Assembly (NCBI GenBank): GCA_017543335.1
Contig: JAFYGE010000040.1
Span: forward strand, 1 to 32,056
DNA from: Ruminococcus sp.
GTDB lineage: Bacteria; Bacillota; Clostridia; Oscillospirales; Ruminococcaceae
DNA length: 32,056 bases
Reading direction: 5' to 3'
Made by a program: the position numbers and the translations under genes. The notes beneath the pieces are model-generated. The model was not told the DNA's origin and did not search any database. It worked only from the letters and a program-made list of their open reading frames with translations. Position 1 is the first letter of the stretch. Each line of letters starts with the position of its first letter. This document shows positions 21,307 through 31,142 of this stretch, piece by piece.

Positions 21307-22686
21307 TCAGAAGTGCATATTAACTGCATCAGGGAATTTGTTTTCGATTATAGTGCATTCGCCCGTTAAGAAATCGACATCAGCTATAAGCAGGTTATGA
21401 CGCTGTTCATCGCCACGATCAAGAATCTCAACTCTCAGACGGAATTTGCGTCCCTGACCATAAGCATCATACACATCTGTGATTTTTCCGTCAGAAGAAG
21501 GATAATCGCCTCCGGCGCTGCCTCCTAAATCTTCGCTGTCTATATTTACATTTTCAGAAGGAATATTGTAATCTAATTCTCCATAACAAACACCGATCTC
21601 TCTGTCGCCAGCTGGGAGCTCTCCATATTCTATAAGCTTATTAAAATCAATATCTGTGTAGAGCTTAGGTGAGTTATCAACTATATATCCGTTATGATCA
21701 GCATAGAATGTATAATCAGGTGTTATCCAGTTATATTCGTTATACTTTGCCATGATATCTTTATATTCAGTTTCAGTGATCTTAACGTCATTTTGCCAGT
21801 ATCCCATAGCATCAGTATCAGGATCCCACCAATTTTTCATAACATCAATAGTTTCTAATGTATTGTTGCTGCCAAGCTTAATAAATGAATCTGGACAGTT
21901 CTTTCCTGATGTATGCAGCCAACCTGCTTCAGGTGATACCACTAATGAATAACCATACATTCTATTATCCGGAGTAATATCTACATACTTGTATCCATCA
22001 TAAACACATAGATAATAATTATTGCAAACCATATTTTCGCTTGATATGATAAGTTCAGGAACATTATCATTATTAAGGTCAACAAGTGAATATTGAATGT
22101 TCATGGCTAAGTAATCATATTTTTCGGTGAATTCAGCCATATAGGTAAGAGCTGCATTTTCTTCTGCACCGTTTCCATATACTCCTTGTTGAGAGATCTC
22201 AATTGTTGTAGGCTGAATTTCAGTTACAACAGCAGGTGAAGTTTCGTTAACAGTAGTTAAAGTTGTTTCGTTTGATGATGTTGATACTACAGTAGTCTGA
22301 GTCTCTTTATCATCGGTTTCAACAGTAGTTGCAACAGCAGGAGTAAAAGTGCTTGAATCGCCTTTAACGCCTTTATTGTTGTCATTCTTTTTCAGAAGGA
22401 ACATTGTTCCGGTGATACCGCCAATCAATACCATGCAGGCAGCTGCTGAAAGTACTCTTTTTACTATAATAGATTTTTGGTAGTTTTCAACTCCCTGAAC
22501 ACTTTCTCCTGTAGTATATTCGATAGATGAAGCAGAAGCTCCGTTTTTCATTTCTTCTAATTTTTTCTTACTCATTTCTAACATTTTTTTCCTCTCCCTT
22601 TCGTTGAGCACAGGACGCTGAGCAAGGCTTTTTATGATTTCATCATTTCCGTTCATCAGTATATCGAGTTCATTTTTCTTTTTCAT
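21307..22686 (-). CDS. Membrane-anchored anti-sigma-like sensor protein
   Basis: A 459-residue single-pass membrane protein. It has a cytosolic helical, charged N-terminal region (1-72), a membrane helix (about 77-97), a Thr/Ser/Val-rich extracellular linker (about 110-168) and a C-terminal extracellular domain (about 175-459). That domain includes LVDLNNDNVPELII (201-214), an FG-GAP/EF-hand-like calcium loop. The gene follows the ECF sigma gene by 13 bases, the usual place of an anti-sigma factor, so it probably holds the sigma at the membrane and responds to an outside signal (inference; no ZAS-type HXXXCXXC motif is seen). The start is the ATG with AGGAGG upstream at 22686; a frame extension to 22716 lacks a site and overlaps the sigma gene. 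Confidence 0.85.
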   Translation of the reverse strand: MKKKNELDILMNGNDEIIKSLAQRPVLNERERKKMLEMSKKKLEEMKNGASASSIEYTTGESVQGVENYQKSIIVKRVLSAAACMVLIGGITGTMFLLKKNDNNKGVKGDSSTFTPAVATTVETDDKETQTTVVSTSSNETTLTTVNETSPAVVTEIQPTTIEISQQGVYGNGAEENAALTYMAEFTEKYDYLAMNIQYSLVDLNNDNVPELIISSENMVCNNYYLCVYDGYKYVDITPDNRMYGYSLVVSPEAGWLHTSGKNCPDSFIKLGSNNTLETIDVMKNWWDPDTDAMGYWQNDVKITETEYKDIMAKYNEYNWITPDYTFYADHNGYIVDNSPKLYTDIDFNKLIEYGELPAGDREIGVCYGELDYNIPSENVNIDSEDLGGSAGGDYPSSDGKITDVYDAYGQGRKFRLRVEILDRGDEQRHNLLIADVDFLTGECTIIENKFPDAVNMHF

Positions 22687-22699
22687 GATCTTTTCCTCC

Positions 22700-23266
22700 T
22701 TACAGTGTGATACCAACTTGAGTAAGCATATCTTTCAATCTGCTCATAGCTCTTTTGCAACGCATACGCACTGCCGGAGCTGTCATATTAAGCAGTTTTG
22801 CAATATCTCCTGATTTTTTATCGTAATAGTATTTTTGTATTACAATAGTTGAATCAGGTTCTCCAAGCTGATTTATCGTATCAATTATGATCCTCTGTAA
22901 TTCTGATTTATCTGAATCTCCCTCGATATCCGTATCCGACCTGAGCCTTCCCATAGTTTCATCGTCGTGCTCGGTATAATGTGAAGTTCTTGCATATATC
23001 CTGTGATAAGTGGTTATTGCTTTTCTTTTAGCAACTGTATTCACGTACCCCTGCATTTCACCTTCATATCCGCTTCCTGTATCGTACTTGAAAAATATAT
23101 CGGCAAATATATCGCTGACACATTCTTCTATATCCTCAGCAGAAGCAATACGTCCGATCTTATTATATACTATTGCATATACATAGTTGCAGTATGTATC
23201 AAACAGTTTTTGATAGGCTTGTTCCGGTGATCTGACATACAGTGCACTGTATTCCGTACCAGTCAT
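22700..23266 (-). CDS. ECF-type RNA polymerase sigma factor
   Basis: A 188-residue sigma-70 family factor. Region 2 (about 20-90) includes AEDIEECVSDIFADIFF and YVNTVAKRKAI. Region 4 (about 130-185) has the helix-turn-helix KSGDIAKLLNMTAPAVRMRCKRA, and a variable acidic linker separates them. GGAGG lies upstream of the ATG. It is followed 13 bases later by a membrane-anchored partner gene, and a 16-base motif shared with the other sigma gene lies about 90 bases before its start. Autoregulated transcription is plausible. Targets cannot be named. Confidence 0.93.
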   Translation of the reverse strand: MTGTEYSALYVRSPEQAYQKLFDTYCNYVYAIVYNKIGRIASAEDIEECVSDIFADIFFKYDTGSGYEGEMQGYVNTVAKRKAITTYHRIYARTSHYTEHDDETMGRLRSDTDIEGDSDKSELQRIIIDTINQLGEPDSTIVIQKYYYDKKSGDIAKLLNMTAPAVRMRCKRAMSRLKDMLTQVGITL

Positions 23267-23582: not shown

Positions 23583-25799
23583 CTAAAGGCTATTGTTTCT
23601 GAACTCAGAAGGTGAGATGCCGGTCTTATTTTTAAACTGCCTCATAAAATGAGTAGCATTCTGATAGCCGCATGATGAAGCGACCTCACTGATACGAAGG
23701 TCTGTTGTAGTCAGCAGCTGTTTAGCCATACTTATCCTTGCATCTATCAGGTCATCGATATAGCTTATGCCGAAATGCTCTTTATAAAGCTTCTGAACGT
23801 AGCTTTTGCTTATATTCAGCCTTTTAGAGAGTTCAGTGAGATTCCAGTCAAGTTCCGGAGCTTTATGCATTTCACGTCTTATCCTTTTGAACTGACCAAT
23901 ACCGGTGAACCCTTTTTCTTTAGGCTGATTACTGTTAAGATTGTCCCAAAGTTCAGAAATACATTTTTCAGCCGGAGCAGTAACATATCCGCATACATGA
24001 TAAGGCTCAGGCAGAAAAGCCGCAGCAGAACCCTCCTGCATTTTTTTGATGAGGACTTCAAGCTCCAGCATCATTTCCTCTGCAAAGTGTTCTGGTGTAT
24101 CTGTATTTTTTAGCGGATAGACAACTGCAAATGTTCTCTTATCAAGACGGGCAGTTTGAAGTTCTCTTCCGGATATCAGACGTATAGCATTCGCAAGAAT
24201 GAGTTCAGACTGCATAACGGTATCAGATAATCTGTTGTTTGTTTGTCCGTTTGATGCAGCAGAAAGCTTTGAGATAGTTACAAGCATAATTCCGTTTTTG
24301 GATTCAGACTGTTCTTGCTTTTCAAGGTAGAGCAGAAGTCCCTTTTTACTTAGCATATCTGTCATTTTATCATACAGAGAAGCTTCCTCTAATTTTTTCT
24401 GCAAGTATTCTGCATAGAGTTTATGACGAAGTATACGCATACCATTTGCAAGTGAGCTCATAAGGTCGAAAAGCATTACTGAAACTGTAAAATCCGAGGC
24501 ATTTTTATATTCCAGTCCCATATAGCCGAATACCTGAGATGATGCGTGAAGTGGAAGTACAAACAGCAGAGTAGGTGAATGCGGCTGTGACAGCATTGGT
24601 ACTATCTGTGAAGTAGGGAAAATGCCTTCATTTTTGCCGTCGTTCCATGCAGTTTTTGAAAGTACACAAGCCATTTTTTCGGGATATGGTTTAGTGATAC
24701 AGCTGTCAGGGTGTTCGGGGTCTGCGTCCCAGTCAGGCAAAATACACATATGCAGGGAGTTGTAATTCTTTATTGTATGAGCAGTTCCGTCGGTTAAAGC
24801 TATAAGCTCAGTCAAAGATTCAACACAGGAAGCTCTTGTTATTACATCAGCATTGATACGCATTTCAAGCATTTCTCCTGCTTCTGCATCACGGCGGATC
24901 TGATCATGAATCTTTTTTGCAGCTGTCTCATAATCGTCCATTCTCTCTACGCATCCGCAGCTTGCACCGTATATTATATTCATACAGCTTTCCGGCAGCT
25001 GAGGTGATTTACCGTCAGATATTTCTATCAGCTTAGCTGCTCCGATACATCCAAGCTCATATATTGCACCACTGATAGTTGTAATTGACGGAAAATTTGA
25101 AATAGCACTGATATGACCGTCAAAGCCTGTTATAATGATATCTTCCGGGACAGATATGCCTCCATTAAGAAGTTCATTACATAGTGTGACCGCCATAACA
25201 TCGCTTGCACATATCACAGCATCAGGCATAGGTCTCTTGTGGTGAATTAGTTCATCTGCAAGTTCAGCAGCACGTATTTTCCAGAAATCACCATATACTA
25301 TTTCATATATACAGTTGTATTTCTCCACAGCACGCAAAAATCCGCTCAGACGCTGCTCTGAATCGGGATTTCCAATAAATCCGGCAAGAAAGATAAGTTT
25401 TTGGCATTCATGCTTTACTATAACGTGCTCAGTCATATTATATACAGCTTTGTCCTGTGAAATACAGACAGTCTCATAACCAAGTTCCGTTCCGCCGAGG
25501 TCTATACACGGAATAGCAGTTTTTTTAATTATGTCTGAAATTTTTACTCGAACAGTTTCTTTGATAAAATACTGAGATGCTAACAGAATCCCGCTTAGTT
25601 CTGCACGTTCAATCAGTTTGTATATACTTTCCTCGCCTTCCATTATCTCGTTCTGGATGTGAAATTCAAGTCCGTTTGTAGCTGTGGTCAGGACTATAAC
25701 ATCGTATCCCGCAGATGATGCAGTTTTGTAAATGCCGTCAAGAAGTTCACTTTGAAGCCTGTCTGTTATCGCTGGGATTATAACTCCTATACGTTTCAC
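23583..25799 (-). CDS. LacI-type sensor / degenerate GGDEF / AraC-type regulator
   Basis: A 738-residue transcription regulator of unusual composition. Residues 1-275 are a periplasmic-binding-protein-like sugar sensor of the LacI type (RIGVIIPAITD, VICASDVMAVTLCNELL, IIITGFDG), without the LacI DNA-binding headpiece. A GASCGC segment follows at about 278-283, then a GAF-like region (about 310-455). A GGDEF-derived domain (about 476-565, DKMTDMLSKKGLLLYLE) has LDKRTF where the active GGDEF loop should be, so it is not expected to make cyclic di-GMP. The C-terminal AraC helix-turn-helix pair (about 640-738) ends GISPSEFRNNSL. The start is GTG at 25799, with AGGGGTGA six bases upstream; the ATG at 25820 lies inside the -10 box. 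It probably senses a sugar in the cytosol. Confidence 0.92.
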   Translation of the reverse strand: MKRIGVIIPAITDRLQSELLDGIYKTASSAGYDVIVLTTATNGLEFHIQNEIMEGEESIYKLIERAELSGILLASQYFIKETVRVKISDIIKKTAIPCIDLGGTELGYETVCISQDKAVYNMTEHVIVKHECQKLIFLAGFIGNPDSEQRLSGFLRAVEKYNCIYEIVYGDFWKIRAAELADELIHHKRPMPDAVICASDVMAVTLCNELLNGGISVPEDIIITGFDGHISAISNFPSITTISGAIYELGCIGAAKLIEISDGKSPQLPESCMNIIYGASCGCVERMDDYETAAKKIHDQIRRDAEAGEMLEMRINADVITRASCVESLTELIALTDGTAHTIKNYNSLHMCILPDWDADPEHPDSCITKPYPEKMACVLSKTAWNDGKNEGIFPTSQIVPMLSQPHSPTLLFVLPLHASSQVFGYMGLEYKNASDFTVSVMLFDLMSSLANGMRILRHKLYAEYLQKKLEEASLYDKMTDMLSKKGLLLYLEKQEQSESKNGIMLVTISKLSAASNGQTNNRLSDTVMQSELILANAIRLISGRELQTARLDKRTFAVVYPLKNTDTPEHFAEEMMLELEVLIKKMQEGSAAAFLPEPYHVCGYVTAPAEKCISELWDNLNSNQPKEKGFTGIGQFKRIRREMHKAPELDWNLTELSKRLNISKSYVQKLYKEHFGISYIDDLIDARISMAKQLLTTTDLRISEVASSCGYQNATHFMRQFKNKTGISPSEFRNNSL

Positions 25800-25818
25800 T
25801 ATATCACCCCTTTTTATC

Positions 25819-25848
25819 ATTATAACGCAGTTAAATCATGATTGTCAA
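25819..25848 (-). promoter_or_regulatory. Promoter of the LacI/AraC-type regulator
   Basis: On the reverse strand, TTGACA (25848-25843) and TATAAT (25824-25819) lie 18 bases apart. The resulting leader is only about 13 bases, just enough to hold the ribosome binding site before the GTG start. The rest of the gap, 25849 to 26107, is AT-rich (above 70% by eye) and I see no gene in it. Confidence 0.8.
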
Positions 25849-26107: not shown

Positions 26108-26123
26108 TGCGACAATGATATGA
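26108..26123 (+). promoter_or_regulatory. Shared 16-base motif upstream of second ECF sigma gene
   Basis: TGCGACAATGATATGA lies 54 bases before the sigma start and matches the motif at 23357-23372 (reverse) at 13 of 16 positions. A T-rich tract precedes it. No standard TTGACA/TATAAT promoter is convincing here, which fits control by an alternative sigma factor (inference). Confidence 0.45.
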
Positions 26124-26177
26124 TTTTTTTCGTATAAGTAACAAATGGAAATATTTCCTGCCGAAAGGAGGAACACA

Positions 26178-26732
26178 ATGGATAACGGTCTAAGTAGCTA
26201 CAACCGTTTCCTGTCAGGAGAAAAAGATGCTATCGATGAAATTATCAAAAACTATAAAGACGGACTTGTATTCTATCTTTATGGCATAACGAAGGATATG
26301 CAGCTGGCTGAGGAATCCGCAATAGATGCATTCGTAAAACTTTATGTAGATAAGCCTAAATTCAAAGGAAATGGTGCATTCAAGACCTGGATTTACACCA
26401 TTGGCAGAAATAAAGCATACGATGCAATGCGAAAGCTCTCAAAGATGCAGTGGGAAAATATAGATGATGCATACGATATTTCTGATTGGAATGACATAGA
26501 AGAAAATGTCACTGAGAACGAGACACGTAATTACCTGCGAAAGATCGTCTCAAAATTAAAACCTGAATACAGTCAGGCGATATATCTCGTTTTTTTTGAG
26601 AACTTCACTAATGATGAAGCCGCAAAGATAATGAACAAATCAAATAAACAGATAAGGGATCTGCTGTACAGGGCAAAAACAACGTTAAAAAAAGAACTTG
26701 CAAAGGAGGGCATGGGCTTTTATGGATTATAA
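26178..26732 (+). CDS. ECF-type RNA polymerase sigma factor
   Basis: A 184-residue sigma-70 family factor. Region 2 (about 10-85) contains AEESAIDAFVKLYV and FKTWIYTIGRNKAYDAMRK. Region 4 (about 120-175) contains FENFTNDEAAKIMNKSNKQIRD (key part EAAKIMNKSNKQ), a typical helix-turn-helix. The ATG at 26178 has AAAGGAGG seven bases upstream; an in-frame ATG at 26145 lacks one. Its 3' end overlaps the start of a large dockerin-bearing membrane protein, its presumed anti-sigma partner. It differs from the sigma factor at 22700-23266 in sequence but has the same gene arrangement, pointing the opposite way. Confidence 0.93.
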   Translation: MDNGLSSYNRFLSGEKDAIDEIIKNYKDGLVFYLYGITKDMQLAEESAIDAFVKLYVDKPKFKGNGAFKTWIYTIGRNKAYDAMRKLSKMQWENIDDAYDISDWNDIEENVTENETRNYLRKIVSKLKPEYSQAIYLVFFENFTNDEAAKIMNKSNKQIRDLLYRAKTTLKKELAKEGMGFYGL

Positions 26733-29394
26733 AGAAATGGCTGCGATCGTCAAAGAGCGTGGTGATCGTATCATAGAAGAAAAAAGAGCACGTGCAGTTC
26801 GTATAAAGAGAATAACCTCCGCTGTAGCTGGGATATGTGCTGTTGCTGCTGCATTTGTAGTCTGGTATAGTGGTTCTATTGATAAATTATCACCGGATGA
26901 TCTGAAAAATCCAAATGATATAATAGTTTCTGAAGAAACCGGAACGACAGTTTCAAAAAATACTACTACATATGTAAATAAAGGAAATAATACTACACAA
27001 ACAAAAGCTGTTGTTACAACATATATCAGCGAAACTAATGCAAGTATAACATCTGCTGTCACCGAAAAGAATCAAAGTGACAAAACTAAAATAAATACTA
27101 CTGGTACTGTAGTTACTCATGCAATAGTAACTGCTCGTACAAGCAAAACTACGTCTATCTCAAATAAAAGTAACTACACCTACGAAACCGGAATTTCAAA
27201 AAAACCTGAGATAGTTGTTACAACTAATGCATACAATCCTGAAGAAAATATAATTGTTACAACTATACCTGTTGAAATTAAAACCCCGGGACGTGAAAGG
27301 AGCTATTATATGAAATTATTATCAAAAAAATTTGCAGAGATGCTTACTGCTGCGACTCTGGTAGTCACACCTTCAACTTCGGTTGCACCAGGAATATTAT
27401 CAAATCCTCTGAACGTTAATGACTATACCAATATTGACGGCTGGGATCCAACTGAAAGATTTGCTGAATTCCGTAATGATGAGAATATTATTGATGTAAA
27501 TGCTGACGGAAAATTTGATATTAAGGATGTATATATATACTGGAGCATAACTCACGGTGACCGTTCACTTGATAAAGAAGTTTATACACTTGATGTTGAT
27601 CTTAACGGAACTTTAAATGATTATGATGACAGCAAAAAAATGATAGATTATTTCCTTTTCTATAACGAGCTTCTTCCAGAATATTTCGATCGTTCTTATT
27701 ATAAATTCAGTGATGAAGAGTATAATTATAAAATCAAAGATGATACTATTGCAGAAGAATTCTGGAATAATTATATTAACGATCTTGAAAAGGAAGCAAG
27801 CTTATTCCATTGTTTCAAAGGCATATTTAATAATAAAGTTGCAAATAAAAAGATCGATCTTGATGTAAGCGGTGACGGTGTTTTTGATCTTGGTGATGTG
27901 TATGATATGTTTGCCTTTGAAAATATGGTCAAGCATTCAGAATGTGCTTGGAATATTATACATAAGATGTCATTTTCAGAGGGACGTAAAGCTATTGCTG
28001 ATTATATAGATGAAAATGGCGGAAATGAAATGTACGAACGCTGTCTCGCTATTTGTGATGAATTACATTATAAAGATAAATTTAAATATGATATAGGCAA
28101 TTATGCATTATTGTATTTCTTTGAAAATAATACGTTCCTGCCAGAATATACAGACGATAATTATTACGAATCTTTGCGTGATTATGGAACGAGAGAAAAT
28201 AAAATGTTAATGCGTGCTGTTTATGCTTACTGTGAAGGTATTGGAATTGAACCAACTGATATGAGAACAAATGTCGATACAAGCAATATTACTGAAGAAT
28301 ATGAAAAATATCTTGACAGACTGAAAAACGGGACTGCTAAAGAACCAGATGTTGATCTTGACGGTAAAATAACTTTCTCTGACTATTATATTATTAATAG
28401 AGTTTTTTGGAATCGCTATAGAAATGATGATGTAATTACAGAAAAAATCAGGATCAATTTCTTAAATAAATTGGATCTTAATATGAACGGAATCAGCGGT
28501 GACTGCCTTGACTGTATGATTGTACAAACATATATCTGTGAGAAATTCGGTATAACTGAAACAAGTCAGAAAAATTATGAGTATTTCAAATATGAATGGT
28601 ACTACAATGACTCTTTAGATTCTATTTGGTCTAAAAGTAAAATTAAAAACTGTTTGATCGGTTCAATTTATCCGCTTACTGATCCTGATGACTGGGTCAG
28701 CCTCAGTGAAATGTATATTTCTGAATTCAAGTATACTGATAGAGATGAACGTAATAAAGTCATTGCTCGCTATTGTGATGAGATAGATGCTGGCAGGCTT
28801 CCTGTTCCTGATGTTGATATGAATGGTGTGTTTGACGAAAATGACTACTATGCCGCTGAGATAACAAGATATTCTCAGACCCATACCGACCTCGGGATCT
28901 ATATTATTCCTCTTAATGTTATGAAAAACTATGTCATGAATTTCGATCTTGACGGAAGCGGCGTGAGCGGCGACGCTGTGGATACACAAATTATACTGTA
29001 CTATGCAGAACGCAAAACAGATATACATCATTCTGACCTTGAAAATAAGATAGATGTCATTCTTGGATATGCTCCAGACCCTGATCCATTCATGACCACT
29101 ACTTCAACTATGCCTGCGTTTATTTATGGTACATTCGGTTATGGTTATTCTACAACAACTACTACAACAAAACCTATCGAAACTCCTGAAACCAAACGCT
29201 CCGGCGATGCAAATAACAATGGTGTTGTTAAAATGAATGATGCCGTTCTTATTATGCAGAATGTTGCAAATCCTGATGAATATAAAATGACTGACGCAGG
29301 TGAATATAATGCAGACGTTCATAATACAGGTGACGGCATCACAAATATGGATGCTCTTAGTGTACAGAAAATGCTCTTGCGATCCAATAATTAA
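26722..29394 (+). CDS. Membrane-anchored anti-sigma-like protein with dockerin-like repeats and C-terminal dockerin
   Basis: An 890-residue protein coupled to the ECF sigma gene by an 11-base overlap. Order of parts: short charged cytosolic segment (1-30), membrane helix (about 31-49), Thr/Asn-rich extracellular linker (about 60-190), a second hydrophobic signal-peptide-like stretch (197-222), then a long extracellular region. That region has calcium-loop sequences of the dockerin/F-hand type starting near residues 258, 291, 381, 543, 585, 697 and 742 (for example DVNADGKFDIKD, DVDLDGKITFSD). The final pair at 829 and 865 (GDANNNGVVKMNDAVLIMQ and the ADVHNTGDGITNMDALSVQ half) is a standard type I dockerin. 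The cytosolic part is very short for an anti-sigma domain. The start at ATG 26722 follows AGGAGGG. A role in sensing or docking to a cohesin scaffold is inferred. Confidence 0.85.
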   Translation: MDYKEMAAIVKERGDRIIEEKRARAVRIKRITSAVAGICAVAAAFVVWYSGSIDKLSPDDLKNPNDIIVSEETGTTVSKNTTTYVNKGNNTTQTKAVVTTYISETNASITSAVTEKNQSDKTKINTTGTVVTHAIVTARTSKTTSISNKSNYTYETGISKKPEIVVTTNAYNPEENIIVTTIPVEIKTPGRERSYYMKLLSKKFAEMLTAATLVVTPSTSVAPGILSNPLNVNDYTNIDGWDPTERFAEFRNDENIIDVNADGKFDIKDVYIYWSITHGDRSLDKEVYTLDVDLNGTLNDYDDSKKMIDYFLFYNELLPEYFDRSYYKFSDEEYNYKIKDDTIAEEFWNNYINDLEKEASLFHCFKGIFNNKVANKKIDLDVSGDGVFDLGDVYDMFAFENMVKHSECAWNIIHKMSFSEGRKAIADYIDENGGNEMYERCLAICDELHYKDKFKYDIGNYALLYFFENNTFLPEYTDDNYYESLRDYGTRENKMLMRAVYAYCEGIGIEPTDMRTNVDTSNITEEYEKYLDRLKNGTAKEPDVDLDGKITFSDYYIINRVFWNRYRNDDVITEKIRINFLNKLDLNMNGISGDCLDCMIVQTYICEKFGITETSQKNYEYFKYEWYYNDSLDSIWSKSKIKNCLIGSIYPLTDPDDWVSLSEMYISEFKYTDRDERNKVIARYCDEIDAGRLPVPDVDMNGVFDENDYYAAEITRYSQTHTDLGIYIIPLNVMKNYVMNFDLDGSGVSGDAVDTQIILYYAERKTDIHHSDLENKIDVILGYAPDPDPFMTTTSTMPAFIYGTFGYGYSTTTTTTKPIETPETKRSGDANNNGVVKMNDAVLIMQNVANPDEYKMTDAGEYNADVHNTGDGITNMDALSVQKMLLRSNN
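27296..27312 (+). promoter_or_regulatory. Internal ribosome binding site and start codon in frame
   Basis: AAAGGAG (27296-27302) lies seven bases before an in-frame ATG (27310-27312). The following residues, MKLLSKKFAEMLTAATLVV then TPSTSVA, look like a secretion signal with a possible cleavage after SVA. The site could start a separate 694-residue secreted protein, or be a relic of a gene fusion. Confidence 0.55.
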
Positions 29395-29454: not shown

Positions 29455-30303
29455 CTAAGTTAAGAAATTCAGCACCTCATGAATGTTCTCATTGATGCAG
29501 ATACTCTGTTTTGCTATCTCATCCGGAACATACGCTTCTCCGAAATTAAGGCATGCATAGACAGCATTAGGGTTTGCGTAGGTCATTTTCCAGAACGGGT
29601 ATTTGATAATTGCAGGTGTGTTCATACCAACACCGAGTTCAAGGAACAGGATATGGAGTCCTTTATGACGGCGGAGAAATTCATTATATCGTTCTGCAGC
29701 CATATGCCAGCCATCGTCCTCGACGAATGTATCATCAGCTCGGAGGTTCATGCTCATGGGTTTGCCGCAGACAGGGCAGTGCGGTATCAGTTCGGATGGA
29801 ACACGCATATTCTTTTGCTGTTCAAACATCGCCTTGACTGTTTCTTCGTTGTCATAAGTCTTCTGGTGGCAGGGGACACTGCACTGCCACAGACCGTAGT
29901 CGCCCTGAGTGTAGAAGAGCCGGTGCTTATCAAAACCAGCCTTCTGGAACTGATGATCCACATTGGTTGTGATGACGAAATAATCTTTATCTTTCATCAG
30001 CTCGAAAAGCAGTCTGTAAGTACCGTTATCGACGTCCATGTATCGATTGATGTAGATGTAACGTGACCAGTATGCCCACTGTTCTTCTGGTGTGGAGAAG
30101 GGATAGAATCCGCCTGAGTACATATCACTGAAGTCGTATTTTTCAACGAAATCACTGAAGTATCTCTGTAAACGCTCGCCTGAATATGTAAATCCAGCGG
30201 CGGTGGAAAGTCCAGCACCTGCACCGATAACGATTGCATCTGCCGTTTCAATTTCTTTTTTCAGACGTTCAAGTTTATCCGAGTAATCTCTTGTAAATTT
30301 CAT
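29455..30303 (-). CDS. Class M (macrodomain-linked) sirtuin, protein ADP-ribosyltransferase
   Basis: A 282-residue Sir2-fold protein of the SirTM class, known to ADP-ribosylate lipoylated GcvH-L in Staphylococcus and Streptococcus. The NAD-binding GAGAGLS (27-33) and TTNVDHQ with Asn114 are present. The usual catalytic His is Gln133 in YTQGDYG, and Arg188 is present; these correspond, with a constant offset of four, to Asn118, Gln137 and Arg192 as I recall them for the S. aureus enzyme. Zinc cysteines are 141, 145, 176 and 179. The substitution argues for transferase rather than deacylase activity. The ATG follows AAGGAGG, and the gene overlaps the macrodomain gene upstream by 29 bases. No GcvH-L or lipoate ligase gene is seen next to it. 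Confidence 0.92.
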   Translation of the reverse strand: MKFTRDYSDKLERLKKEIETADAIVIGAGAGLSTAAGFTYSGERLQRYFSDFVEKYDFSDMYSGGFYPFSTPEEQWAYWSRYIYINRYMDVDNGTYRLLFELMKDKDYFVITTNVDHQFQKAGFDKHRLFYTQGDYGLWQCSVPCHQKTYDNEETVKAMFEQQKNMRVPSELIPHCPVCGKPMSMNLRADDTFVEDDGWHMAAERYNEFLRRHKGLHILFLELGVGMNTPAIIKYPFWKMTYANPNAVYACLNFGEAYVPDEIAKQSICINENIHEVLNFLT

Positions 30304-31033
30304 AATCTTCCTCCTTAAAAACGTTGAAGATCACCTGTATATCATGTGTTTTGAGGAACTCCCTGACTGTTTTTACAGCGATCTCAGCAGCCTTATCCTG
30401 AGGAAATCCAAACACTCCGGTAGAGATACAGCAGAATGCCATACTGCTGATACCGTTTTGCACAGCGATTTCCAGACAGCTTTTGTATGAGTTTTGCAGC
30501 AGTAGGCAATGTTCAGCTGTAAGACTTCCGTCCACTATTGGACCGACGGTATGTATTACATAGTCACAAGGCAAGTTATAGGCAGGAGTTAATTTCGCTT
30601 TACCGGTTGGTTCTTCATGTCCTTGCTGTTTCATGATTTGACTGCACTTGTACCGTAAGCGTACTCCTGCAAAGGTATGTATGCAGTTGTCGATACAGTT
30701 GTGACATGGGAGATAGCATCCTGTCATTCCTGAATTTGCGGCATTGACGATAGCTCCGCACCGCAGCGTAGTTATGTCGCCTTTCCAAAGATAAATATTA
30801 TCTTCGATCGGCGATAGATCGCTAATATCAGTTATACCTTTGCTTTGGGTCAAAGCAGTGAGATATTCGTCCTCGACTTGCAAAAAATCGTCGTCTGCTT
30901 TCACTGCATGGCGGATATTCACAAGACTTCTGTAAAGTCTGAATTTGTCCGCATCATTGTCGGGTATCTCTATTCCGTCAGCGTCGTTTCTTTCGGAAAG
31001 GAGATAGTTTATAAGGAAATCAAGTTTGTTCAT
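30275..31033 (-). CDS. Zinc-containing macrodomain protein-ADP-ribose hydrolase
   Basis: A 252-residue protein predicted to remove the ADP-ribose added by the neighbouring sirtuin. The macrodomain follows a helical N-terminal extension (about 1-75). It shows IVNAANSGMTGC (95-106), the zinc motif GCYLPCHNC with Cys106, His111 and Cys113 as likely ligands, and STGVFGFP (204-211) for the phosphate loop, all typical of the SirTM-linked Zn-macro class. I placed the start at the ATG at 31033, after GAGGTG; a frame extension to 31099 runs through the divergent promoter region. The 29-base overlap with the sirtuin gene implies coordinated translation. Confidence 0.93.
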   Translation of the reverse strand: MNKLDFLINYLLSERNDADGIEIPDNDADKFRLYRSLVNIRHAVKADDDFLQVEDEYLTALTQSKGITDISDLSPIEDNIYLWKGDITTLRCGAIVNAANSGMTGCYLPCHNCIDNCIHTFAGVRLRYKCSQIMKQQGHEEPTGKAKLTPAYNLPCDYVIHTVGPIVDGSLTAEHCLLLQNSYKSCLEIAVQNGISSMAFCCISTGVFGFPQDKAAEIAVKTVREFLKTHDIQVIFNVFKEEDYEIYKRLLG

Positions 31034-31054
31034 GTTCAGCACCTCGCTTTGAAA

Positions 31055-31083
31055 TTGACTTTTTCGATTGGAAGATGTATAAT
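31055..31083 (+). promoter_or_regulatory. Promoter of the GNAT gene, divergent from the macrodomain operon
   Basis: TTGACT (31055-31060) and TATAAT (31078-31083) are 17 bases apart. The inverted sequence TGTCAA at 31094-31099 gives a reverse-strand TTGACA facing the macrodomain gene, but a well-spaced reverse -10 box is not clear. The arms AATTGAC/GTCAATT flank the region. Confidence 0.75.
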
Positions 31084-31142
31084 TATAATGCAATGTCAAT
31101 TGATTGGCTTGCTCGTGTAAATAGTTTTTTATAGGAGAGTAT

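What the first reader, a model, noticed from the sequence alone, without database searches (positions are those of the whole stretch)
26178..29394. ECF sigma factor coupled to a membrane protein with dockerin modules: a possible cellulosome-linked signalling pair
Seen: a sigma gene overlaps an 890-residue gene with one membrane helix, a Thr-rich linker, at least seven dockerin/F-hand-like calcium loops and a standard type I dockerin at the C-terminus. Known: SigI/RsgI systems of cellulolytic clostridia place carbohydrate-binding domains outside and an anti-sigma domain inside. Here the outside part is built of dockerin-like repeats, which would let the sensor bind cohesins and report scaffold occupancy instead of polysaccharide. 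I do not recall such an architecture being described. The cytosolic segment is only about 30 residues, so the anti-sigma mechanism is open.
Basis: partly seen in the sequence, partly recalled or inferred. Interest (0 to 1): 0.78.

Follow-up and report, generated by a model that had tools for sequence, protein, structure and literature searches.

The report
Sensor and secreted protein, one gene
A gut bacterium that digests plant fibre carries a gene switch joined to a membrane sensor that ends in a docking module for its fibre-digesting machine, and the sensor gene seems built to make a second, secreted copy of its outer half, a layout repeated in dozens of related species.

Summary
An ECF sigma gene (26178-26732) overlaps an 890-residue single-pass protein (26722-29394) with a short cytosolic head, Thr/Ser-rich stalk, about seven calcium loops and a C-terminal group-1 ruminococcal dockerin. 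The genome has ScaA/ScaB-like cohesins and three more such pairs; I examined 104 fused genes of the genus. Four sigma classes pair strictly with four head classes (63 of 63 pairs compared), while the ectodomain has moved among heads, so the head is probably the anti-sigma part. SigI/RsgI membership fails. Behind the stalk lies an in-frame Shine-Dalgarno, ATG and signal-peptide-like segment: a blind scan finds it in 83 of 104 family ORFs versus 1 of 117 control ORFs, and the ribosome site is kept while its amino acids change. And an exact copy of the operon's promoter occurs only at the operon in ten of ten genomes searched. I infer one gene making two proteins: a membrane anti-sigma sensor and a secreted dockerin protein that is the sigma factor's own output. 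Internal calcium loops lack cohesin-contact residues, so cohesin-occupancy sensing rests on the C-terminal dockerin and is unproven. No expression data exist; the structure prediction did not finish.

The parts
26108..26137 (+). ECF-type promoter TGCGACA-N16-CGTATAA of the sigma operon (putative sigma box)
   Evidence: Exact in 13 of 15 operons with this head subtype, one mismatch in the other 2; one exact copy per genome in 10 of 10 genomes searched
26178..26732 (+). ECF sigma factor, 184 aa (sigma2 + sigma4)
   Evidence: Pfam Sigma70_r2 and r4_2 over cut-off; SD GAAAGGAGG at 26163-26171
26722..29394 (+). 890-aa fused protein: anti-sigma head, membrane helix, stalk, calcium-loop ectodomain, dockerin (long form)
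26722..26811 (+). Cytosolic head, residues 1-30, putative sigma-binding part
   Evidence: Head class matches sigma class in 63 of 63 pairs compared
26812..26868 (+). Transmembrane helix, residues 31-49
   Evidence: Highest Kyte-Doolittle window, 1.99
26872..27306 (+). Thr/Ser-rich stalk, residues 51-195
   Evidence: 30% T+S; fast-evolving
27295..27302 (+). Internal Shine-Dalgarno GAAAGGAG, 7 nt before the internal ATG
   Evidence: duplex energy -8.2, synonymous-shuffle p 0.024
27310..29394 (+). Predicted short form (694 aa) from the internal ATG: signal peptide, ectodomain, dockerin
   Evidence: stand-alone homologues start at the same place
27310..27390 (+). Signal-peptide-like segment, residues 197-223 (end approximate)
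   Evidence: Second most hydrophobic region of the protein; as constrained as the head in ortholog pairs
27493..27528 (+). Calcium loop 1, residues 258-269
27592..27627 (+). Calcium loop 2, residues 291-302
27862..27897 (+). Calcium loop 3, residues 381-392
28348..28383 (+). Calcium loop 4, residues 543-554
28474..28509 (+). Variant calcium loop 5, residues 585-596
28810..28845 (+). Calcium loop 6, residues 697-708
28945..28980 (+). Variant calcium loop 7, residues 742-753
29194..29379 (+). C-terminal group-1 type dockerin, residues 825-886
   Evidence: phmmer to 5m2o 8.2e-14; contact residues M39 V43 Q47 Q83 L87 in RfDoc1a numbering

Best explanation
A self-contained sensor-effector operon of cellulosomal Ruminococcus. 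The ECF sigma factor is held by the roughly 30-residue head of the fused membrane protein. When an outside event reaches the ectodomain (nature unknown; candidates are docking of the dockerin to ScaA/ScaB cohesins, calcium, or substrate contact) the head lets go, and sigma transcribes from the one matching promoter found, its own. The mRNA yields sigma, more of the long membrane anti-sigma (negative feedback) and, from an internal ribosome site and ATG behind the stalk, a secreted copy of the ectodomain with dockerin that can join the cellulosome. So one gene gives both sensor and output, and the two forms share one dockerin. Shown by sequence: pair architecture, head-sigma agreement, internal SD/ATG/signal-peptide-like segment kept across the family, promoter box at the operon, group-1 dockerin residues, matching cohesin types. 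Inferred: sigma binding by the head, use of the internal start, export of the short form, promoter recognition by this sigma, and the signal.
For: A frame with ECF-type C-terminus directly upstream of 63 of 65 fused ORFs; a frame in that place in 39 of 40 more (place only). Four sigma classes map one-to-one on four head classes, 34/18/8/3 of 63; with heads trimmed to their own Met, 658 same-class and 0 cross-class head matches at E <= 0.1. On the ectodomain tree head class A changes 8 times, B 10, C 7. Internal start: SD energy <= -6 at 52 of 65 designated internal Met versus 51 of 955 other in-frame Met. Blind scan for SD plus signal-peptide rule: 50 of 65 in the first sample, 1 of 117 control ORFs; in a second sample 33 of 39 new records, among them 16 of 19 whose profile match had not reached the motif. 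The SD stays while the amino acids change (ERS, EGS, EGG, RRV, EGR, ERR, EEG). Arg codon in the E-R motif is AGG in 37 of 41 versus 280 of 1547 elsewhere. The signal-peptide segment is constrained (0.12 nonsynonymous changes per codon) beside a loose stalk (0.34). 18 stand-alone secreted homologues, 17 with a C-terminal dockerin. Promoter TGCGACA-N16-CGTATAA: exactly one exact copy, at the operon, in own genome and in 9 of 9 others.
Against: No transcript, ribosome-profiling or protein data. Internal SD is weak in 13 of 65, with at least 8 state changes on the tree; 6 of 39 in the second sample fail the blind scan. Synonymous divergence is not lower around the internal start (21 of 113 codons changed versus 1621 of 7666 elsewhere, p 0.56). 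Loci are related, so p-values overstate independence; most designated Met had been picked with a score that included SD and eight were set by hand, although the blind scans did not use them. Own promoter search sees only near-consensus sites in an 85.9% complete genome. For class B the one-mismatch sites away from the operon (13 in eight genomes) outnumber the reversed-pattern control (5), so self-only regulation is not shown there. No solved or curated anti-sigma domain matches the head.
Confidence: 0.6

Rival explanations
1. Fusion scar: a secreted dockerin-protein gene was fused behind anti-sigma heads and kept its old ribosome site and signal peptide without use; only the long membrane form matters.
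For: Head classes change often on the ectodomain tree, so recent fusions could bring fresh SDs; SD weak in 13 of 65; stand-alone secreted homologues exist; no local drop in synonymous divergence.
Against: SD persists in whole clades with about 8 state changes at least while its amino acids change; Arg codon bias 37 of 41 AGG; signal peptide far more constrained than the adjoining stalk.
Confidence: 0.22
2. Cohesin-occupancy sensor: the membrane protein's dockerin binds ScaA/ScaB cohesins and reports free cohesin sites or scaffold presence to sigma. Compatible with the dual-product model, in which the short form would compete for the same cohesins.
For: All five group-1 contact positions suitably filled (M39 V43 Q47 Q83 L87); C-terminal dockerin in 61 of 65 fused ORFs; ScaA/ScaB-like cohesins in the genome; cohesins in 124 of 125 genomes of the genus at E <= 0.001, 121 over the cut-off.
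Against: Internal loops lack the contact Gln; two clear members (L109, L121) lack a C-terminal dockerin; cohesins are near-universal in the genus, so co-occurrence has no power.
Confidence: 0.25
3. Cleavage model: the inner hydrophobic segment acts in the long protein as a processing site or second membrane segment, and release of the ectodomain by proteolysis is the signal or the source of free protein.
For: Second hydrophobic segment at residues 204-226, kept in 63 of 65 by the signal-peptide rule.
Against: Does not explain a ribosome site and ATG kept at nucleotide level; a signal peptide downstream of an N-in helix would have the wrong orientation for signal peptidase (topology rules, recalled).
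Confidence: 0.13
4. The membrane protein is not an anti-sigma factor, only a co-transcribed cellulosomal surface protein.
For: Head is only about 30 residues and has no Pfam or NCBIfam match.
Against: Agreement of head and sigma classes against a freely moving ectodomain; the same head type follows a related sigma (44% identity) with a different ectodomain at C38.
Confidence: 0.08

Closest known systems
SigI/RsgI biomass-sensing systems of Acetivibrio-type cellulosome producers
   Same: Sigma operon with a single-pass anti-sigma factor whose outside part relates to plant-fibre digestion; several paralogues per genome; autoregulation (PMC6056542, passages)
   Different: Sigma here has sigma2 and sigma4 (SigI lacks sigma4); no RsgI_N; outside part ends in a dockerin, with no carbohydrate-binding domain recognised; internal start. 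PMC11557425 (passages) says only Acetivibrio-type producers use the RsgI suite
ECF sigma / single-pass anti-sigma pairs with short cytosolic heads in Bacillota (RsiV-like, recalled)
   Same: Overlapping genes, short head, one helix, promoter directly upstream
   Different: No Pfam match to the heads; Thr-rich stalk, calcium loops, dockerin, internal start
Group-1 dockerin proteins of R. flavefaciens bound by ScaA/ScaB cohesins (5M2O, 5M2S; PMC5429695, passages)
   Same: C-terminal dockerin with the contact residues
   Different: The two solved ones come from secreted enzymes; here the dockerin sits on a membrane protein paired with a sigma factor
Bacterial genes with in-frame internal starts (found by ribosome profiling; recalled)
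   Same: Two proteins from one frame
   Different: Here the short form gains a signal peptide and the long form is a putative anti-sigma factor; the searches found no such case

Membership tests
ECF sigma factor | Sigma2 and sigma4 only | tested here: met
   Sigma70_r2 42.1 bits, Sigma70_r4_2 37.6 bits; TIGR02937 84.7 bits over its cut-off of 42.9
ECF sigma factor | Autoregulated operon with cognate anti-sigma | tested here: inconclusive
   Conserved promoter-like site upstream; transcription not shown
SigI/RsgI | Sigma without sigma4 (SigI type) | tested here: not met
   Sigma4 present; definition from PMC6056542 passages
SigI/RsgI | RsgI_N domain in the anti-sigma | tested here: not met
   No RsgI_N in P0002; in the genome one sub-cut-off match elsewhere, C33, 22.1 bits
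Single-pass anti-sigma factor | Cytosolic head binds the cognate sigma | not testable with these tools
   Only indirect: class agreement
R. flavefaciens group-1 dockerin | Contact residues at 39, 43, 47, 83, 87 | tested here: met
   M39 V43 Q47 Q83 L87 by alignment to 5m2o; Val and Met at 39 are named as natural substitutions in PMC5429695
R. flavefaciens group-1 dockerin | Binds ScaA/ScaB cohesin | not testable with these tools
   Cohesins of that type present
Pfam Dockerin_1 (PF00404) | Score over 22.9 bits | tested here: not met
   Window protein 10 bits; three paralogues pass with 35.1, 33.1, 29.3 bits
Gene with two translation starts | Initiation at the internal ATG | not testable with these tools
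   Sequence support only

The most novel reading that the evidence does not exclude
One gene encodes both the membrane anti-sigma sensor and, from an internal ribosome site, the secreted cellulosomal protein that is the sigma factor's main or sole output; both forms carry the same dockerin, so the secreted form can compete with the sensor at the scaffoldin and close a feedback loop through cellulosome assembly. Cellulosomal ruminococci, reported not to use the RsgI suite, would carry a whole family of such private circuits made by shuffling one ectodomain among at least four sigma/anti-sigma lineages.
Probability: 0.4. Interest if true: 0.88.

Novelty: new variant of a known kind. Interest (0 to 1): 0.8.

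Why it matters
How ruminococci regulate their cellulosomes is called not yet understood in PMC4081043 (passage), and PMC11557425 (passage) restricts RsgI sensing to Acetivibrio-type producers. This family gives a concrete, testable candidate in a dominant group of fibre degraders. If the internal start is used, it is a compact way to make sensor and effector from one gene, and annotation that calls one protein per frame would hide many secreted cellulosomal proteins.

Tried and rejected
SigI/RsgI membership: rejected. Internal repeats as cohesin binders: rejected on contact residues. Local synonymous conservation at the internal start in 14 ortholog pairs: null. RNA accessibility at the internal start: slightly higher (0.49 versus 0.45 unpaired, p 0.011), too weak to lean on. 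Cohesin co-occurrence: no power, 124 of 125 genomes have cohesins. Wider regulon: two-mismatch sites in own genome are at control level (8+8, operon included, versus 8+13). Named-genome scan gave only two loci. A first clustering of heads that included the membrane helix merged three classes into one; one search left the helix out but for short heads still included out-of-frame sigma-coding sequence; one search repeats it with heads trimmed to their own Met: no cross-class match at any threshold, classes A, B and D whole at E <= 0.01, class C (over-trimmed) in pieces. Literature: searches found no paper on a dockerin-bearing anti-sigma factor or on an anti-sigma gene with an internal secreted start; the held library lacks most subscription journals. 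PMC5742341 looked promising by its terms but its passages concern SusCD loci.

Rows and selection. The 80 regions were picked from the capped match list, best first and mostly with matches reaching the profile start, which contains the E-R-S motif; this could inflate the SD count. I therefore fetched 40 further matches, 20 of them with matches that start 40 or more positions in: 34 of 40 pass the blind scan (17 of 20 and 17 of 20). L157 proved the same record as L053; without it 16 of 19 and 33 of 39. Of 90 hit ORFs in the first sample, 67 had the match starting 100 or more residues into the frame; L052 (same record as L102) and L112 (stand-alone) were dropped, leaving 65. Of the other 23, 17 are stand-alone genes (with L112 the 18 S rows) and 6 are fragments or early matches (second frames of L060, L071, L129; L067, L110, L113). 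L067, L110 and L113 also carry the internal SD (-7.9, -8.2, -8.2) but are in no count. Control ORFs are stop-to-stop frames of 330 or more residues on either strand of the loci then held, scanned from residue 120; family ORFs were scanned from residue 85 behind the head start.
Full report
1. What is there. The sigma gene lies at 26178-26732 (184 aa, sigma2 and sigma4 both over Pfam cut-offs). It overlaps by 11 nt an 890-residue ORF at 26722-29394. That protein has a head of about 30 residues, one strong membrane helix (residues 31-49), a stalk 30% Thr+Ser, and an ectodomain with five strict and two looser calcium loops. It ends in a dockerin matching R. flavefaciens group I dockerins (5m2o, 8.2e-14). 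Pfam Dockerin_1 scores only 10 bits in this protein, and the genome-wide list of 53 Dockerin_1 matches leaves it out.

2. Cellulosome context. The genome (2.4 Mb, 95 contigs, 85.9% complete) holds 12 cohesin matches, including a cluster on C68: a one-cohesin protein with dockerin, a two-cohesin protein with a ScaA-type dockerin (5n5p_B, 1.3e-28), and a multi-cohesin protein cut by the contig end. Cohesins of both larger proteins match CohScaA (5m2s_A) and CohScaB3 (5m2o_A, 5aoz_A). In PMC5429695 (passages read) group-1 dockerins bind ScaA and ScaB cohesins, with residues 39, 43, 47, 83 and 87 the most important; the window dockerin has Met, Val, Gln, Gln, Leu there. Cohesin binding is therefore likely, but untested.

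3. A family. Three more pairs of the same make-up occur in the genome, two in tandem on C43 and one on C26, each with its own ECF sigma. A profile of the ectodomain hits 120 of 125 genomes of the genus at E <= 0.001; 56 of 125 reach E <= 1e-20 by my count of the table. At that threshold 247 genomes drawn from the family (126 genera) gave only the window's own genome. R. flavefaciens Y1 is a named carrier. I studied 65 fused ORFs in a first sample and 39 new ones in a second; selection and dropped rows are told under Tried and rejected.

4. Head and sigma belong together. A frame with a sigma region 4 look lies directly upstream of 63 of 65 fused ORFs, and a frame in that place of 39 of 40 in the second sample. 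Clustering gives four sigma classes and four head classes that agree in 63 of 63 (34, 18, 8, 3). That head clustering had let in some out-of-frame sigma-coding sequence; with heads trimmed to their own Met there are 658 same-class and no cross-class matches at E <= 0.1. On a tree of 83 ectodomains the five labels (four head classes and stand-alone) need 17 changes where 4 is the least possible; well-supported branches force at least 4, 6 and 5 for classes A, B and C (quick tree, several long branches). So one ectodomain has moved among sigma/head cassettes, while head and sigma stay together. This is the best evidence that the short head is the anti-sigma part. At C38 a 44%-identical sigma is followed by the same head type with a different outside part, cut by the contig end.

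5. The internal start. In all four own paralogues the stalk ends in GAAAGGAGY-NNTNNT-ATG-AAR followed by a signal-peptide-like stretch; in the window the SD is 27295-27302 and the ATG 27310. Across the 65 fused ORFs SD pairing energy is -6 or better at 52 designated Met, versus 51 of 955 other in-frame Met of the same ORFs; 36 of 65 beat synonymous shuffles at p < 0.05 one by one. A scan blind to the designated position (ATG, SD energy, simple signal-peptide rule) finds a site in 50 of 65 ORFs, the designated Met being hit in each of the 50, and in 1 of 117 other long ORFs. In the second sample it finds 33 of 39, so 83 of 104 in all. Selection acts on nucleotides: the site is kept in different wordings (ERS, EGS, EGG, RRV, EGR, ERR, EEG), and the Arg codon of the E-R motif is AGG in 37 of 41 cases versus 280 of 1547 elsewhere. 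In 14 ortholog pairs the signal-peptide stretch changes as slowly as the head (0.12 and 0.11 nonsynonymous changes per codon), the stalk three times faster (0.34), the ectodomain 0.19. Eighteen stand-alone homologues begin at the same point, 17 of them with an SD-like motif of four or more bases; by eye I saw no sigma among the upstream frames listed for them.

6. Results against it. The SD is weak in 13 of 65, with at least 8 state changes on the tree, and 6 of 39 in the second sample fail, so some lineages do without it. Synonymous divergence around the internal start is not lower than elsewhere (21 of 113 versus 1621 of 7666). The rows are related, so p-values are not independent. Nothing shows initiation directly.

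7. The output. Upstream of the sigma genes lie class-specific ECF-like promoters. For the window's subtype TGCGACA-N16-CGTATAA is exact in 13 of 15 operons seen and off by one in two. It occurs once without mismatch in own genome, at 26108-26137, and exactly once in each of nine other genomes, always at the operon; four further one-mismatch sites in those nine do not exceed the reversed-pattern control. For class B, in eight genomes, six have one exact box each, at the operon; G017 has a one-mismatch box at its operon and G101's operon box lies beyond the threshold; but 13 one-mismatch sites elsewhere outnumber the control's 5, so further class B targets are possible. For class C (six genomes, four with matches) boxes lie at the operon in all four, with 5 sites elsewhere against 13 in the control. 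There a second copy lies inside the sigma coding region about 326 nt before the second gene, with one mismatch or none in 7 of 8 class C loci; the region is also coding, so this copy is only suggestive. The simplest reading for the window's sigma is that it mainly drives its own operon, so the second gene, in both forms, is the output. Degenerate sites would be missed.

8. Mechanism and doubt. The dual-product circuit is my best explanation (0.6). What the ectodomain senses is open. Cohesin docking is plausible through the terminal dockerin, but the internal loops do not carry its contact residues (Gln47 in 58 of 61 terminal dockerins, not among the eight commonest residues at that place in 238 internal loops), and two clear members lack a terminal dockerin (L109, L121). 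I give occupancy sensing 0.25.

9. Known or new. Not SigI/RsgI. PMC11557425 (passages) confines RsgI sensing to Acetivibrio-type producers; PMC4081043 (passage) calls regulation in ruminococci not yet understood; PMC2930009 (passages) counts 118 dockerin proteins with regions of unknown function in strain FD-1, and the words sigma and membrane do not occur in its main text. PMC3672088 (passages) names a dockerin-only protein in the extracellular proteome of strain 007; whether it belongs here is unknown. No paper describing this arrangement turned up in the searches listed. I rate it a new variant of a known kind.

Noticed in passing
window 21307-23266 (-): A second ECF sigma (22700-23266, Sigma70_r4_2 30 bits) overlaps a 469-residue protein with a helix, Thr-rich stalk and an unrelated ectodomain without Pfam match: the same operon plan without dockerin; it is not among the control hits.
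   Followed up: partly
L046, L056, L057, L060, L089, L125, L132 (and weakly L129), about 326 nt before the second gene: Class C sigma genes carry a second copy of their own promoter-like box inside the sigma coding region, which would transcribe the second gene alone (7 of 8 with at most one mismatch).
   Followed up: partly
window 29455-31099 (-): A sirtuin-like gene (recognised by eye, no Pfam match) overlaps a macrodomain gene (PF01661, 122.7 bits): looks like a SirTM/macrodomain ADP-ribosylation pair (name recalled).
   Followed up: no
window 23583-25820 (-): Divergent neighbour with a periplasmic-binding-protein-like sensor domain and AraC-type DNA-binding domain, resembling XylR-type sugar regulators (recalled).
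   Followed up: no
L048 2034-3292: Sigma 44% identical to the window's, followed by the same head type and Thr-rich stalk but another ectodomain, cut by the contig end.
   Followed up: partly
L109 and L121: Two related members lack both the C-terminal dockerin and a strong internal ribosome site, as if the short form were useful only with a dockerin.
   Followed up: no
L087, L098, L101, L103, L105-L108, L111, L112, L114, L117-L119, L122-L124, L126: Stand-alone secreted versions of the ectodomain, 17 of 18 with a dockerin, in two groups on the tree; cellulosomal proteins of unknown function.
   Followed up: partly
G000 contig C33 9379-9480 (-): A sub-cut-off RsgI_N match (22.1 bits, cut-off 25) in a 377-residue frame, a possible RsgI relic in this genome.
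   Followed up: no
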